IMG/VR virus record: IMGVR_UViG_3300037245_003482
Location: 1 to 64,000 of that record
Origin: a virus
Strand: one strand, 5' to 3'
DNA length: 64,000 nucleotides
Below the pieces are notes generated by a model, which worked only from the letters and a program-made list of their open reading frames with translations, made no database searches and was not told where the DNA came from. Below, one piece after another: positions 1,097 to 55,490 of the stretch. Position 1 is the first letter of the stretch. Each line of letters opens with the position of its first letter. The position numbers and the translations under genes are program-made.

Positions 1097-1630
1097 ATGG
1101 CAAAAGAACTAGAAGAATTTGACAGCAAAGAATTGGCGTTTGATACACTCAGCAGCCAATTCCAAAAGCCTGAATTTACTAAAATTGCAAATGTGCTTGG
1201 TGCTGTATTTGATGAAATAAATGAAACCCATTTTTATATTAAAGACGGTTTTGATGTTGAAACAGCTGTGGAAAATGAGCTTACCATATTGGGTAAAGTA
1301 TGGGACGCAATAAGGGGGGGCAAGGATGACCCAACCCTCAGGGCAGAAATAAAAGTAAATGCTGCACGGGTTTCTTCAGGTACTTTCCCTGAATTAAAAG
1401 CTGCCTTGTTGACCCAGTTTGGGGGTAGTTTAGCTTTATTATATAATTTATATGCTGCAGGGGAAGAAGCAGCATATATAGCAGTAACAGATGCGGTAAT
1501 AACACAAAAAGAACTCGAGGACATAAGTGCTGCAGGTGTTGGGGTTTATTTTGGTAGTTTTTTAATTGGTGAAGATGGTTCTGAAATAATCAGTGAAGCC
1601 GATGGTGATAATATAATTGGAATTGGATAG
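1097..1630 (+). CDS. Baseplate/tail protein, DUF2612-like
   Basis: 177 residues, ten bases after the baseplate J gene. The N-terminal half has the layout of the small wedge proteins that follow gpJ: LSSQF...PEF at the start, a helical segment, then LTILGKVWDAIRGGKDDPTLRAEI and an N-A-A-R-V-S-S-G-T stretch. The C-terminus is acidic and repetitive (GEDGSEIISEADGDN), as often seen where a trimeric partner docks. It probably connects baseplate wedge and fibre. The family call rests on motif layout and gene order only. Confidence 0.6.
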   Translation: MAKELEEFDSKELAFDTLSSQFQKPEFTKIANVLGAVFDEINETHFYIKDGFDVETAVENELTILGKVWDAIRGGKDDPTLRAEIKVNAARVSSGTFPELKAALLTQFGGSLALLYNLYAAGEEAAYIAVTDAVITQKELEDISAAGVGVYFGSFLIGEDGSEIISEADGDNIIGIG

Positions 1631-1639
1631 GAGTAAATT

Positions 1640-3793
1640 ATGACAACGGCAAAAAGAATCCAAGAGTACCCTCTAACTGCATTTACAGAAACAGATGATA
1701 TTCTGTATTTAGCCCGAGGCACAGGGGGAGGGCCAGGAACGGATCACCACATTAAAATAGAGGATTTAGTTTACCCAAAATATTTAAGTCTTACCAGTAC
1801 AACACCAGTAGATTTAGGTACCTATAAGGGGGACCTAACAATAATGGCCAGTGGTACATTTACCATTACTTTTACTAATGAATTATTGGTTGGAAAACAA
1901 CTTGTAGTTATGAATAAAGGTACTGGAGTTATTACTTGTGCTGGCACTGTGGCTGCCTCTTTAAAAGAAGATGAATCGCTCCGTGGGATTTCTGATGGTT
2001 CTGCAATGGCAGTTACACGGCACATCTCTATGGATGCCTCGGGTAATCTTGCTGCTATTAGTGTTATTGGGAACATTACAGGTACTGGGGCACTAAGTAT
2101 AAATGGGGCTGTTAAATCAGGCACAACTGGTGCAAATGGTTCTTTAGAAGTAGGGCGTACTTCAGACGGTGCTTCAATAGGCTTTTTAACTACTGATGGC
2201 ACCCACGTACATGTATCTAATACAGGTGCTGGGGGTTCTTTAAAATTAAAGACAGCAGGTAGTGATAGGTTAATTATAGATGATTCTGGTAATGTTGGTA
2301 TTGGTGTAACACCAAGTACATTATTACATGTAGGTAAAAATCAAAATGGCAGCACCAAAGTTACAACAACAAATACTAATTCAGGAACATCAGCTTATTC
2401 AGGTATTGAAATTGAAGGGGAAAATGCTGTTGGATTTCTAAGAGCGCACTCAGATGCTAACACAGAACTTGGAAGGGGGGGCACAGTTGTACTAGGGGCT
2501 ACTGGTGGCACTGCTAATGGCCTTATACTATATGCTGCAACTGAACGTATGCGCTTCCAAGGGGTTGGTGGTGTTACTCGTATGGAGCTTAATAACAATG
2601 TTCTTGCTTTTGGAGTAGCTCCAAAAGCATGGGACAGTAATTTTGTTGCGATGGACATTGGTTCCCATGGTACGGTGATGTCACAAAATACTGGTGCTGC
2701 TACCGATGGGATCTATATAATAGACAATATATATAATGATGCCGTATGGAAACGAAAGGCAACAAAGGCATGTGGTTATTATGTGACATCAGCTGGTGTA
2801 CATAAATGGTTTAGTGACGTAAGTGGTTCAGCAGGAGTAGGCTTTACACCAACAGAGCGTATGCGATTAAATGTTGATGGGCAATTACTTATTGGTACTA
2901 CTGTAGCCCCCATAACCGCCTTTCGTCAGGTAGTATTTAATGCTGCAACCTCTTCGCTTGCAATTTATCAGACAACTGCGTCTGGAACTGGAACAGGTAA
3001 TGGCTCCTATATAGGGCACCACGATACCTCCGGTATGAAAATATGGGGGTATGAGAACCTGGGGATGACATTTGGAACTAATGACACAGAAAGGTTGACC
3101 ATAAGTGCAGCAGGTGACTTAGCAATAAACACTAACAAATTTACAGTTGCCTATGCTACGGGTAACTTAGCTATAAATACTGATAAGTTTACTGTAGCAG
3201 GGGCCACAGGCAATACAGTGGTAGCCGGGTCACTTCAAGTAGGTGGTTCTATCATAGGCGTGATCAACAGTGCTGCCTATATAGAAGACATAAGAAATTT
3301 AAGTTCAGATGCTGCTGCCCATGGACTAAAAGTAAGAACTAATAATAATAACGCGGCTACAGAATTATTACGTTTAGAAGCAGCAGCAGCTACTAGGTTC
3401 ACAGTATTTTCAGATGGTGGTGTATCTATGCCATTTATTCCTACATCAGGCTCTGGTAATGCAGTATATGTAACCGCTGCTGGGACCCTTTGGGAAAACA
3501 CATCATCCAGACGTTTTAAAACTAATATACGGGAACTTGAATTGGATACTACTAAAGTATTACAATTACAAGCTACAACATATGAGCGGAAAGATAAAGA
3601 AGGTAAAGCAATTAAAGGCTCTACGGAACACGGCCCAATTGCTGAAGATTCTGCCAAGGTAGATCCTTGCTTTGCTACTTATGACAAAGATGGCAAAACC
3701 CCCCGGGGACTACATAAAGATAATATCTTGTGGGCACTACTTGAAGAAGTTAAAAAACTACGTTCTGAAGTTAATGAACTAAAAGGAGCCTAA
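1640..3793 (+). CDS. Tail fibre with C-terminal S74-type intramolecular chaperone
   Basis: 717 residues preceded by a GGAG ribosome site. The body is low-complexity beta repeats of the type GNVGIGVTPSTLLHVG, ERMRF and TERMRLNVDGQLLIGTT, found in trimeric phage fibres. From about residue 622 it has the S74 peptidase/chaperone signature: SSRRFKTNI, where a Ser performs self-cleavage, then a Y-E-R-K beta segment, HGPIAEDSAKVDP, and a final helix DNILWALLEEVKKL forming the trimeric coil. In this family the end domain folds the fibre and is then cut off. Likely the long fibre or its receptor-binding tip. Confidence 0.85.
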   Translation: MTTAKRIQEYPLTAFTETDDILYLARGTGGGPGTDHHIKIEDLVYPKYLSLTSTTPVDLGTYKGDLTIMASGTFTITFTNELLVGKQLVVMNKGTGVITCAGTVAASLKEDESLRGISDGSAMAVTRHISMDASGNLAAISVIGNITGTGALSINGAVKSGTTGANGSLEVGRTSDGASIGFLTTDGTHVHVSNTGAGGSLKLKTAGSDRLIIDDSGNVGIGVTPSTLLHVGKNQNGSTKVTTTNTNSGTSAYSGIEIEGENAVGFLRAHSDANTELGRGGTVVLGATGGTANGLILYAATERMRFQGVGGVTRMELNNNVLAFGVAPKAWDSNFVAMDIGSHGTVMSQNTGAATDGIYIIDNIYNDAVWKRKATKACGYYVTSAGVHKWFSDVSGSAGVGFTPTERMRLNVDGQLLIGTTVAPITAFRQVVFNAATSSLAIYQTTASGTGTGNGSYIGHHDTSGMKIWGYENLGMTFGTNDTERLTISAAGDLAINTNKFTVAYATGNLAINTDKFTVAGATGNTVVAGSLQVGGSIIGVINSAAYIEDIRNLSSDAAAHGLKVRTNNNNAATELLRLEAAAATRFTVFSDGGVSMPFIPTSGSGNAVYVTAAGTLWENTSSRRFKTNIRELELDTTKVLQLQATTYERKDKEGKAIKGSTEHGPIAEDSAKVDPCFATYDKDGKTPRGLHKDNILWALLEEVKKLRSEVNELKGA

Positions 3794-29090: not shown

Positions 29091-29680
29091 TTACTTTTAA
29101 TATTGTATACTTACTGTGAGTGGCAGAAGTAATTACCTGCACACAAAACACTCGCTCTTTTGGTAATGGGAGGGGGGGCAACCCCCCTAATCTTTCCTAA
29201 TGAGGGCGGGCGACCCATTATCATAAAATTGGAAAACCCCATTTTTATGTGTTGAATAAACTTTGTACGCTCTACATATACGCCCATTAGAAACTGGGGC
29301 CCTTAATACCAGTTTTAACCGTTCTGCAACCCCTGATGGCAACTGAAAGGGGCTCGAAATGCCTTACGTGCGTCCTTTTGTATTATGCATTTGAAACAAG
29401 GGCCCAGGCGGAGCAGGGTATGAACCAGGCCGTCGAAACTCGAGGGGCAGCCCTGGGACCCACATTGCTGGGGAAAATGTATCAAACGCGCGCTGTCCCA
29501 ACAAATGACACCTGTACAATGGGCAACCATTGACTAGGCTATATTGTAGGTTGTGAAGTCAGTAAAGAGGGCCACAGTGCAAGCAAATGCACTAATCGAT
29601 ATAGAGCATCCAATAGAATACACTAAAAGTGGGACCTAGGCGTACAGTCTAGGAAAACTCCGCCAAATTCCTAAAAGTAA
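29091..29680 (+). ncRNA. Gene-free ~590-base segment, candidate large structured RNA
   Basis: No credible gene between 29080 and 29781. Many local helices are visible: GGGGGG/CCCCCC (29172-29187) inside TAATGGG/CCCATTA (29164-29170/29214-29220); AAACTGG/CCAGTTT (29291-29297/29309-29315); CCCAGG/CCTGGG (29403-29408/29452-29457) backed by GGG/CCC; CAATGG/CCATTG (29517-29530); AGTGCA/TGCACT (29575-29593); CCTAG/CTAGG (~29635-29653). TTACTTTTA/TAAAAGTAA (29091-29099/29672-29680) could close the whole, though a 9-bp match over this span is not rare. Size and phage setting recall ROOL/GOLLD-class RNAs, but I cannot assign a family. Strand assumed from flanking genes. Confidence 0.5.
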
Positions 29681-45291: not shown

Positions 45292-45293
45292 GT

Positions 45294-45384
45294 AGGCAGG
45301 TGAAGTACAGTAACCTGATGTACTTATTGGGTTAGCGCCCCTGGGGTTATATAATGCTGCTATGCAGCAGGCTCCCCAGTGCCT
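45294..45384 (+). ncRNA. Structured leader before the gene at 45403
   Basis: AAGTACA/TGTACTT (45303-45309/45319-45325), CTGGGG/CCCCAG (45341-45346/45374-45379) enclosing GCTGC/GCAGC (45356-45360/45364-45368), all closed by AGGCA/TGCCT (45294-45298/45380-45384). TTTTT follows, then AGGAG. Could be an attenuator or a small RNA. Confidence 0.45.
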
Positions 45385-45402
45385 TTTTAACAGGAGTAAC
45401 AA

Positions 45403-47336: not shown

Positions 47337-47347
47337 CAAAGGCATTG

Positions 47348-47423
47348 TGGGCCGCTGCTTTTTAGGCCCAGGGCATAGGGTTGTCGCAACTGGGGGGTGA
47401 TGGCCCCAGTTAACCCCTTGCCC
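47348..47423 (+). ncRNA. Structured leader before the gene at 47444
   Basis: TGGGCC/GGCCCA (47348-47353/47365-47370), then a long arm GGGCA..GGGTT/AACCC..TGCCC (47371-47382/47412-47423) capped by AACTGGGG/CCCCAGTT (47388-47395/47404-47411). AAAGGA ribosome site follows 10 bases on. Suggests RNA-level control or a small RNA. Confidence 0.5.
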
Positions 47424-47443
47424 CATAAGCAGAAAGGAATAAT

Positions 47444-49767: not shown

Positions 49768-50383
49768 CAGATTTGGGCTTGATGTAGCTTATTACCGTAA
49801 AGAACTAAAGGCACTTAGTGATTCATTGGTGGACAGAACACCAGAGGAACTTAATAGGTACCTTTTGACCATGGCTGGTAAGAAGCCTAGTACAAAAGAA
49901 GAGGCAACAGTAACAGTGCCCCCATATGTAAAAAGTGGGTATGCCAAGCTTATAGCAGACTTTGCTGAAGATTTACCAGAGCAGCCAAATGTGGCCAAGG
50001 TTTTGAAGCAGGCAAGGTTTACATTATGTACTATTTTCCAGGGGCATAAAGAAAGTATGTCATTGCATGGGTACCATAACCGTGTTTGTGATTTTTTGCA
50101 TGATTTAGAAATGGAACATAAAAATAGTGAAGAAAAGGAAAAAGAAGAACCAGTACCTGTCTATAACCTAGAAGGGTGGGCTAAAATACAAAAGGCCCTA
50201 GCAGAGGATAAGAACTTATCACATGCTATTCTATTCCCAGAAAAGGAACCATGGCGCAATGCTGAACTTAATGCAATGGCCCGCGCTATTGTAGGGGAAA
50301 CAATACAACCAGGCAGCAAGGATTTCTTTGTTGATTTGGTGTACAAAATATTAAAAGAAGTACAGAACAAGTTTACCCATTAA
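49760..50383 (+). CDS. Hypothetical protein
   Basis: 207 residues, mainly helical. YYRKELKALSDSLVDRTPEEL followed by NRYLLTMAGKK is a phrase often seen in uncharacterised phage proteins. Glu/Lys-rich hinge at ~130. No domain assigned. Last coding gene before the structured RNA. Confidence 0.6.
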   Translation: MNNRFGLDVAYYRKELKALSDSLVDRTPEELNRYLLTMAGKKPSTKEEATVTVPPYVKSGYAKLIADFAEDLPEQPNVAKVLKQARFTLCTIFQGHKESMSLHGYHNRVCDFLHDLEMEHKNSEEKEKEEPVPVYNLEGWAKIQKALAEDKNLSHAILFPEKEPWRNAELNAMARAIVGETIQPGSKDFFVDLVYKILKEVQNKFTH

Positions 50384-50388
50384 CTTTA

Positions 50389-50400
50389 TATAATAGGGGT
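50389..50400 (+). promoter_or_regulatory. Phage promoter motif (TATAATAGGGGT) of the structured RNA
   Basis: Exact copy preceded by TTAACTT, ending one base before the first helix of the RNA at 50402. Placement makes the RNA 5' end close to the helix. Confidence 0.65.
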
Positions 50401-50401
50401 A

Positions 50402-50587
50402 AGAGCACATTGGAAGGTGACATTGTAGTATATATGACCGCAGGAAGGACCAACTCCCAATATGGGCGAAGGAAAGTACTGGACAGGGGTTGGAAAAGCT
50501 ACAAGCATTGCATTGGTTTAATGTAACCTGGGATGCCAATGCGGGTGCCCCTTGGTACCAACAAGGGGGCGCCTTCCAATGTGCTTT
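50402..50587 (+). ncRNA. Compact structured RNA, unknown class (~186 bases)
   Basis: The ends pair over 18 positions (50402-50419 with 50570-50587), including a perfect 13-bp core GCACATTGGAAGG/CCTTCCAATGTGC. Inside: TTGTAG/CTACAA (50423-50428/50499-50504), CCAACTCC/GGGGTTGG with one G-T (50450-50457/50486-50493), GCATTGG/CCAATGC (50510-50516/50536-50542) and CCCCTTG/CAAGGGG (50548-50554/50562-50568). It starts right at a promoter copy and lies 22 bases before a tRNA. CATTGG and CCAATG each occur twice in the fold, so helices could exchange partners. No known family recognised. Confidence 0.7.
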
Positions 50588-50609
50588 ATCATTTAAAGGC
50601 TAATATGAA

Positions 50610-50683
50610 CGTGATGTAGCTCAATTGGTGGGGCGCCTTGCTTATAGGTAAGGAAGTAGGTGGTTCGATTCCATCCATCGCGG
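50610..50683 (+). tRNA. tRNA, Ile(TAT)-like, with 8-base anticodon loop
   Basis: All arms fold: acceptor CGTGATG/CATCGCG, D-arm GCTC/GGGC with AATTGGTG loop, T-arm GGTGG-TTCGATT-CCATC, 5-base variable loop, discriminator G, no encoded CCA. The anticodon stem CCTTG/TAAGG leaves the loop CTTATAGG (50641-50648), eight bases instead of seven; a 6-bp stem with a 6-base loop is the alternative. With T at position 33, TAT (Ile, AUA codons) or four-base TATA would be exposed. AUA codons are common in this phage. Confidence 0.75.
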
Positions 50684-50701
50684 CTTTTTAAAGAGGATAA
50701 T

Positions 50702-51112
50702 ATGACCCACAATGAAGCATATGAAAAGTACCCTGAAATAATGGGCATTAATAAACCAGCAAGAATGCCCCCACCTGTTATTTTTGAACCAGCTGAAAAT
50801 GTTACGACCCTTATATTCCTTGAGATCATACAGGCAAGGGTTACAATGTGTGAAGTGTTGGCCTATGTGCTATTAGTGCAGAAACAGGCCCCAAAGCATC
50901 ATATTATTTATTTAATGGGCACTGAGTACCAATTCCACCCGTTTGTAGGCTACCACATGTTAAATGGGGGCACAATAGAGGCACAGGACCCCATTTATAC
51001 TTATGATACGTTCTTAGCTGAATTAGATATGAGCAGGATGGTACTGGCTTCTGTTAGTTGTGGGGCAGAAGCCCATTGTTTCATAGAAAGAAGAATGGAA
51101 ATAGGGTATTAG
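50702..51112 (+). CDS. Hypothetical protein downstream of tRNA
   Basis: 136 residues from the ATG at 50702 (AGAGG upstream); the longer frame would run through the tRNA. Pro-rich start, then beta-rich (HHIIYLMGTEYQFHPFVGY). No family. Confidence 0.55.
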   Translation: MTHNEAYEKYPEIMGINKPARMPPPVIFEPAENVTTLIFLEIIQARVTMCEVLAYVLLVQKQAPKHHIIYLMGTEYQFHPFVGYHMLNGGTIEAQDPIYTYDTFLAELDMSRMVLASVSCGAEAHCFIERRMEIGY

Positions 51113-54680: not shown

Positions 54681-55490
54681 ATGAGTAACAACGCATTGAA
54701 TAGATACATGGATGACATAGGCAAAACTCCCCTTATGAGCAGGGAGGAAGAAAAAAGCATAATTACAAAGGCGCAGCATGGGGACATGAAGGCCCGGAAC
54801 GCATTGATACTAGCCAATATGCGTTTAGTTGTTGCAGTGGCCCTTAAATACAAAACAAAAAGCCTACAACCTGAAGACCTGATTAGCATAGGGGCATTAG
54901 GACTTATTCGGGCCATTATTGAATTTGATAACACAAGGGGCCTTAGGTTAATTTCATATGCTGTGTGGTGGATAAGAGCTGCTATTAACCAAGATTTGAA
55001 TGATGTGGATAATCTTATAAAGCTGCCCAGTAATAATGCATACATAATAAGAAAGGCCTTATTGGAAGTTGATTTAGGGTTTGCTGTACCAAAAAAGGTA
55101 GTTGCAATGATAGAAGCCAGGGACCGCATTTTTTATTTAGATAATAATGGGCCAGAAGAGTTATCCGATTTAGGACACAAACCAAAGCCTCGTGATTTAG
55201 AGTACAAAGGGTTAGAAGACACTATAGTACAAAAAATGGGGCGTGCACAGTTTAATAAAGAAATTAAGGGTAGGATTGAAAAATTACCACCAAAGCAAAA
55301 AAAGGCACTTTCATTGTACTATGGCATAGGGTATGACCACACTTATACAGTAAGGGAAGTGGGGGAAATTCTGGGGTGTTGTAGGCAAAATGTGCATCAG
55401 CTAATGAGGCAAGGTCTTACGGGGCTACGTAGGAAACTACCAAAAAGTTATTACCTTGAAAAATTACAATCAATGACAGTAAGTGAATAA
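54681..55490 (+). CDS. Sigma-70-family RNA polymerase factor
   Basis: 269 residues. Region 1.2-like LNRYMDDIGKTPLMSREEE at the N-terminus; region 2 at ~40-108 with ANMRLVVAVALKYK, EDLISIGALGLIRAI and ISYAVWWIRAAINQ (2.3-2.4); a shortened region 3; region 4 at ~205-260 with LPPKQKKALSLYYGIG and the HTH VREVGEILGCCRQNVHQLMR. Directs host core polymerase to phage promoters. Region 4 would expect a -35 contact, yet the recurrent motif shows none, so its targets may differ from those of the region-2-only protein at 27.9 kb. Confidence 0.85.
   Translation: MSNNALNRYMDDIGKTPLMSREEEKSIITKAQHGDMKARNALILANMRLVVAVALKYKTKSLQPEDLISIGALGLIRAIIEFDNTRGLRLISYAVWWIRAAINQDLNDVDNLIKLPSNNAYIIRKALLEVDLGFAVPKKVVAMIEARDRIFYLDNNGPEELSDLGHKPKPRDLEYKGLEDTIVQKMGRAQFNKEIKGRIEKLPPKQKKALSLYYGIGYDHTYTVREVGEILGCCRQNVHQLMRQGLTGLRRKLPKSYYLEKLQSMTVSE

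What the first reader, a model, noticed from the sequence alone, without database searches (positions are those of the whole stretch)
50402..50587. Compact, tightly closed RNA between a phage promoter and a tRNA
Seen: 18 continuous end-to-end pairs (13 perfect) enclose at least four further helices, no gene, and a promoter-motif copy ends one base before the first helix. CATTGG and CCAATG each occur twice, so two alternative pairings exist (50405-50417 with 50536-50541, or 50510-50516 with 50577-50582), a possible switch. Inference: a phage small RNA, perhaps cut from the downstream tRNA by RNase P, of a class I do not recognise.
Basis: partly seen in the sequence, partly recalled or inferred. 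Interest (0 to 1): 0.8.

Follow-up and report, generated by a model that had tools for sequence, protein, structure and literature searches.

The report
Orphan structured RNA beside phage tRNA
A bacterial virus carries what looks like a gene for a tightly folded 186-base RNA, starting exactly at one of the virus's own promoters and followed by its only detected tRNA; the fold is almost certainly real and resembles no RNA family on record, but its function is unknown.

Summary
At 50402-50587 an 18-pair helix (14 contiguous Watson-Crick) joins both ends of a 186-nt noncoding segment and encloses three arms. It is the best-folding 186-nt stretch in the 64 kb (MFE -74.1, z -5.35), and no 18-pair stem at a promoter start arose in 15,000 shuffles. 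The 5' arm begins at the predicted start of a recurrent phage promoter (AACTTNNTATAATAGGGGTA); the phage encodes a sigma-70-type factor. A tRNA with an 8-nt anticodon loop follows 22 nt later and folds independently.

Best reading: a small stable RNA gene made with, and probably cut from, the tRNA, an arrangement like T4 RNAC/RNAD. The 'switch' is not supported: the end-exchanging pairings cost 18-19 kcal/mol.

No Rfam family matches. No homolog was found in phage or plasmid records, nor in the one related phage found (about 55-70% identity in its main structural proteins), which lacks both RNA and tRNA. Compensatory change therefore could not be tested. It is a lineage-specific orphan RNA of unproven function.

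In passing: a larger (~570 nt) noncoding RNA candidate at 29.1-29.7 kb is shared by both phages and matches no Rfam family.

The parts
50382..50401 (+). Phage promoter: AACTT-NN-TATAATAGGGGTA (-10 box 50389-50394; predicted start 50400-50402)
   Evidence: Recurrent motif, 6 exact and 4 one-mismatch copies in the record; start point inferred from usual -10 spacing
50402..50587 (+). Candidate structured noncoding RNA
50402..50419 (+). P1 5' arm
   Evidence: pairs with 50570-50587
50423..50504 (+). Arm P2: outer helix 50423-50429/50498-50504, inner helix 50450-50457/50486-50493 (inner part uncertain)
50505..50542 (+). Arm P3, two alternative registers
50548..50568 (+). Hairpin P4, with the palindrome TTGGTACCAA (50552-50561) at its tip
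50570..50587 (+). P1 3' arm
50588..50609 (+). Linker between RNA and tRNA
50610..50684 (+). tRNA with 8-nt anticodon loop CUUAUAGG, no encoded CCA
50702..51112 (+). Downstream 136-aa ORF, probably in the same transcript; no family match
54681..55490 (+). Sigma-70-type factor, itself behind a motif copy; candidate reader of the promoter

Best explanation
A phage small-RNA gene. Shown from sequence: a strong end-to-end closed fold that starts at a recurrent promoter motif, and a tRNA 22 nt downstream that folds on its own. Inferred: RNA polymerase with the phage sigma factor starts at about 50401, so the RNA begins with its 5' end in P1. RNA, tRNA and probably the next ORF are co-transcribed; RNase P cuts at 50610 to make the tRNA 5' end, and exonucleases trim the released 3' tail back to P1, leaving a nuclease-resistant RNA of about 186 nt. 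Most likely it then acts in trans as a stable structural or protein-binding RNA during infection. No partner is identified.
For: Stem and its placement far beyond chance; fold z -5.35 and best in the window; plus strand favoured, as the promoter direction requires; ten copies of the promoter motif and a phage sigma factor; RNA and tRNA fold as separate modules; T4 has a similar arrangement, two small stable RNAs beside tRNA genes, seen as late RNAs with unknown roles (PMC9697503, PMC3014915).
Against: No homolog, so no covariation test. The one relative found lacks it, so it is dispensable in the wider lineage. Inner arms are only partly certain. No transcript data. One start-less reading frame has a borderline codon score. 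A cis role in the operon is not excluded.
Confidence: 0.58

Rival explanations
1. Cis-acting leader: the structure is the 5' end of the tRNA-ORF transcript and works only there, by protecting the transcript from decay or presenting the tRNA for processing, without a separate function.
For: It is first in an apparent operon; two other promoter copies also lead into hairpin-rich noncoding leaders before genes.
Against: 186 nt with a four-way junction is elaborate for a stabiliser; other promoters of this phage mostly lead straight to a ribosome-binding site, with stems of only 6-8 pairs at their start points.
Confidence: 0.27
2. Two-state RNA switch through the repeated CATTGG/CCAATG hexamers.
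For: The hexamers do occur twice each.
Against: The end-exchanging pairings are 18-19 kcal/mol worse; prefix folds show P1 pairing in place once its 3' arm is made.
Confidence: 0.03
3. Remnant of a protein gene, or a short peptide gene, with fortuitous structure.
For: A 60-codon plus-strand frame is open with borderline codon score.
Against: It has no usual start codon in a position to use it all and no Pfam match; P1 and its position exceed chance.
Confidence: 0.06
4. A DNA-level inverted repeat (recombination remnant or protein-binding site) that happens to follow a promoter.
For: An inverted repeat alone does not prove an RNA; the minus strand also folds better than its shuffles (z -3.51).
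Against: Inner arms add to the fold; the plus strand is favoured; the arm starts exactly at the predicted start point.
Confidence: 0.06

Closest known systems
Phage T4 RNAC (species 1) and RNAD (species 2)
   Same: Small stable phage RNAs (139 and 119 nt) next to tRNA genes, functions unknown (PMC3014915, PMC9697503)
   Different: No similarity found by the R1 model; RNAC carries a T-arm-like 3' hairpin, and neither is predicted to have a long end-to-end stem. Here the RNA is first in the operon, directly at the promoter
ROOL and GOLLD RNAs
   Same: Structured phage/prophage RNAs of unknown function, often near tRNA islands (PMC12286853)
   Different: Much larger (GOLLD often over 800 nt); no Rfam match here
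phi29 packaging RNA (pRNA)
   Same: Phage RNA of similar size with paired ends and a helical junction (general knowledge)
   Different: No Rfam match; unrelated phage with a different large terminase family
6S RNA
   Same: About 185 nt with paired ends (general knowledge)
   Different: Four-way junction rather than a rod with a central bubble; no Rfam match

Membership tests
T4 RNAC/RNAD | Sequence/structure similarity to T4 RNAC or RNAD | tested here: not met
   Model R1 finds nothing in the T4 tRNA region L028; predicted folds differ
T4 RNAC/RNAD (as a working type) | Stable noncoding RNA adjacent to a phage tRNA gene | tested here: inconclusive
   Adjacency met; expression and stability need experiments
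ROOL / GOLLD | Match to the Rfam covariance model | tested here: not met
   cmscan against all 4227 families at relaxed threshold
phi29-type pRNA | Match to the Rfam covariance model | tested here: not met
phi29-type pRNA | RNA ring on the packaging motor | not testable with these tools
   needs biochemistry
6S RNA | Match to the Rfam model; rod with central bubble | tested here: not met
Retron ncRNA | Reverse transcriptase in the same element | tested here: not met
   no PF00078 match in the 74-kb record
TnpB omega RNA | TnpB-type nuclease in the same element | tested here: not met
   no PF07282 match in the record
Type III toxin-antitoxin or Abi RNA | Adjacent toxin or Abi protein | tested here: not met
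   ten neighbouring ORFs have no PADLOC match; the flanking ORFs have none in Pfam or PHROGs either

The most novel reading that the evidence does not exclude
A new class of phage noncoding RNA, a four-way-junction RNA whose 5' end lies in its closing stem and which is processed from a tRNA transcript, in a phage lineage that also makes at least one larger unclassified structured RNA (about 570 nt at 29.1-29.7 kb) and several promoter-led small RNAs. The GGUACC palindrome at the tip of P4 could mediate dimerisation (speculative).
Probability: 0.3. Interest if true: 0.62.

Novelty: new variant of a known kind. Interest (0 to 1): 0.42.

Why it matters
Phage RNAs of unknown function beside tRNAs (T4 RNAC/RNAD, ROOL, GOLLD) are a long-standing puzzle. 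This would add a compact example, unrelated by the tests run here, with a precisely defined promoter and probable ends, small enough to synthesise, probe and delete. If the lineage also makes the larger conserved RNA at 29.1-29.7 kb, it would be a useful system for asking what such phage RNAs are for.

Tried and rejected
Homolog hunts that failed: blastn in phages and plasmids; protein-based scans of viral contigs with a flanking ORF, terminase, DNA polymerase and portal. Terminase and capsid alignments gave only G001 and a near-identical contig in viral contigs and nothing in genome contigs. The promoter-pattern scan is what found G001. A single-sequence covariance model found only itself with default filters; with filters off in the corresponding region of G001 it hit only other simple inverted repeats. 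Switch model: rejected on energy. Retron, TnpB and defence contexts: rejected. Protein-coding: weak. A shuffle-based fold scan timed out and was replaced by a regression on composition. Alternative energy parameter sets gave identical numbers, so they were probably not applied and are not used as evidence. Metagenome contigs could not be scanned.

Full report
What was checked. The window is part of a 74,014-bp virus record in IMG/VR. Its genes include a DNA polymerase, helicases, thymidylate synthase, large terminase, portal, head protease and major capsid protein, so it is a tailed phage. The 186-nt segment 50402-50587 lies between a 207-aa ORF that ends at 50383 and a tRNA at 50610.

The stem is real and not chance. 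50402-50419 pairs with 50570-50587 in 18 continuous pairs, 14 of them contiguous Watson-Crick. In 15,000 dinucleotide shuffles of the downstream sequence, none gave an 18-pair helix starting in the first seven bases (best 17, twice); nine other promoter-like sites in the window give 6-8 pairs. The whole segment folds at -74.1 kcal/mol (z -5.35). In a composition-corrected scan of 6,609 windows from this phage and its relative it ranks fifth, and first within the 64 kb. The plus strand folds better against its own shuffles than the minus strand (z -5.35 against -3.51), the direction the promoter needs.

Architecture. P1 (mean pair probability 0.95 over its 17-pair core) opens into a four-way junction with arm P2 (outer 7 bp, 0.86), arm P3 (0.45-0.5, two registers) and hairpin P4 (7 bp, 0.88). 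The inner part of P2 is uncertain and changes with temperature. With the tRNA attached, RNA and tRNA keep their own folds, separated by a 22-nt linker.

The switch. CATTGG and CCAATG each occur twice, but swapping P1's strands with the inner copies costs 18-19 kcal/mol (-58.3 and -57.2 against -76.6). The only near-equal alternative is a register shift inside P3 (-75.3). Folding of growing prefixes shows P1 pairing in place as its 3' arm is made. A stable two-state switch is therefore not supported.

Promoter. TATAATAGGGGTA occurs exactly 6 times and 4 more times with one mismatch; the reversed control gives 1. Several copies share AACTT two bases upstream, and most lead within tens of bases to a ribosome-binding site and start codon. 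It has a perfect -10 box and no good -35. The phage encodes a sigma-70-type protein with matches to regions 1.2, 2 and 4, itself behind a copy of the motif. That this sigma reads the motif is an inference. With usual -10 spacing the start point falls at 50400-50402, the first base of P1.

The tRNA. ARAGORN and Rfam both call it (44.2 bits). It has an 8-base anticodon loop, CUUAUAGG, so ARAGORN reports a four-base anticodon; no CCA is encoded. AUA is used at 28.8 per thousand codons, about as often as AUU, with AUC at 5.7, which would suit a UAU reader.

Not a gene, not a known element. No plus-strand ORF with a start codon has coding-like codon use; one start-less frame is borderline, and neither it nor the 30-aa ATG ORF matches Pfam. 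No Rfam family matches even at relaxed thresholds. No reverse transcriptase or TnpB-type gene is found in the record, and the neighbouring ORFs match no defence family.

Relatives. No phage or plasmid record has similar DNA. A scan with the extended promoter found one relative, IMGVR_UViG_3300009314_000009 (68 kb; portal, terminase and capsid 56-70% identical); a second contig is nearly identical to it. ARAGORN finds no tRNA in that relative, and it has no homolog of the RNA (with filters off, only other simple inverted repeats score). Several of its promoter-like sites read TATAATAA. So the RNA-tRNA cassette appears specific to this phage or its close kin, and compensatory changes could not be tested.

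Interpretation. The nearest working parallel is phage T4, whose tRNA region also encodes two small stable RNAs, RNAC and RNAD, classed as late transcripts with unknown roles (PMC9697503, PMC3014915). ROOL and GOLLD are larger phage RNAs that also tend to sit near tRNAs (PMC12286853). I judge a separate, trans-acting RNA most likely (0.58) and a cis-acting leader next (0.27). Release by RNase P and trimming to P1 is inferred, not shown.

Also seen. Two other copies of the promoter lead into about 100-nt noncoding leaders with hairpins (45292-45390, 47338-47432); their folds are not clearly better than shuffles (z about -1.4). More striking, a noncoding stretch at about 29112-29680 is conserved in the relative (core 82% identical over 82 nt), its small ORFs have no protein-level match there, it matches no Rfam family, and 28 of 90 predicted consensus pairs are changed on both sides yet kept between the two sequences, though two sequences are a weak test.

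Noticed in passing
window 29112-29680 (+); relative G001 about 18145-17590 (-), L019: About 570-nt noncoding region conserved between the two phages, core 29277-29358 82% identical, with a -10-like box upstream in both. It folds well in the relative (z -4.3) and moderately here (z -2.2), has no Rfam match even at relaxed threshold, and 28 of 90 consensus pairs are changed on both sides (two sequences only, so lenient). Candidate new large phage RNA.
   Followed up: partly
window 50610-50684: The only tRNA found in the phage has an 8-nt anticodon loop CUUAUAGG (possible four-base anticodon UAUA, or UAU with an extra base) and G at the discriminator position; AUA codons are frequent in the phage. 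It could be a frameshift-reading tRNA, an altered Ile-type tRNA or a sequencing error.
   Followed up: partly
window 45292-45390 and 47338-47432: Two more promoter copies are followed by about 100 nt of hairpin-rich noncoding leader; the first also closes its ends and finishes with UUUUU.
   Followed up: partly
L019 2920-3006 (-): In the relative, a promoter-like TATAATAAG is followed by a leader ending in a 16-bp terminator-like hairpin and U-run (z -4.9), then a gene: a possible small RNA or attenuator.
   Followed up: no
L019 5818-6280: Cluster of ACTTTTTTAAAAAAGTTA inverted repeats with nearby direct repeats around GTGGTGACCG in the relative, between genes.
   Followed up: no
L019 about 760-1545 and 1602-2345 (-): The relative seems to carry two adjacent sigma-factor-like genes (the 1602-2345 one matches this phage's at 34%; the second was judged by eye from sequence), and its terminase is inverted relative to portal compared with this phage.
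   Followed up: no
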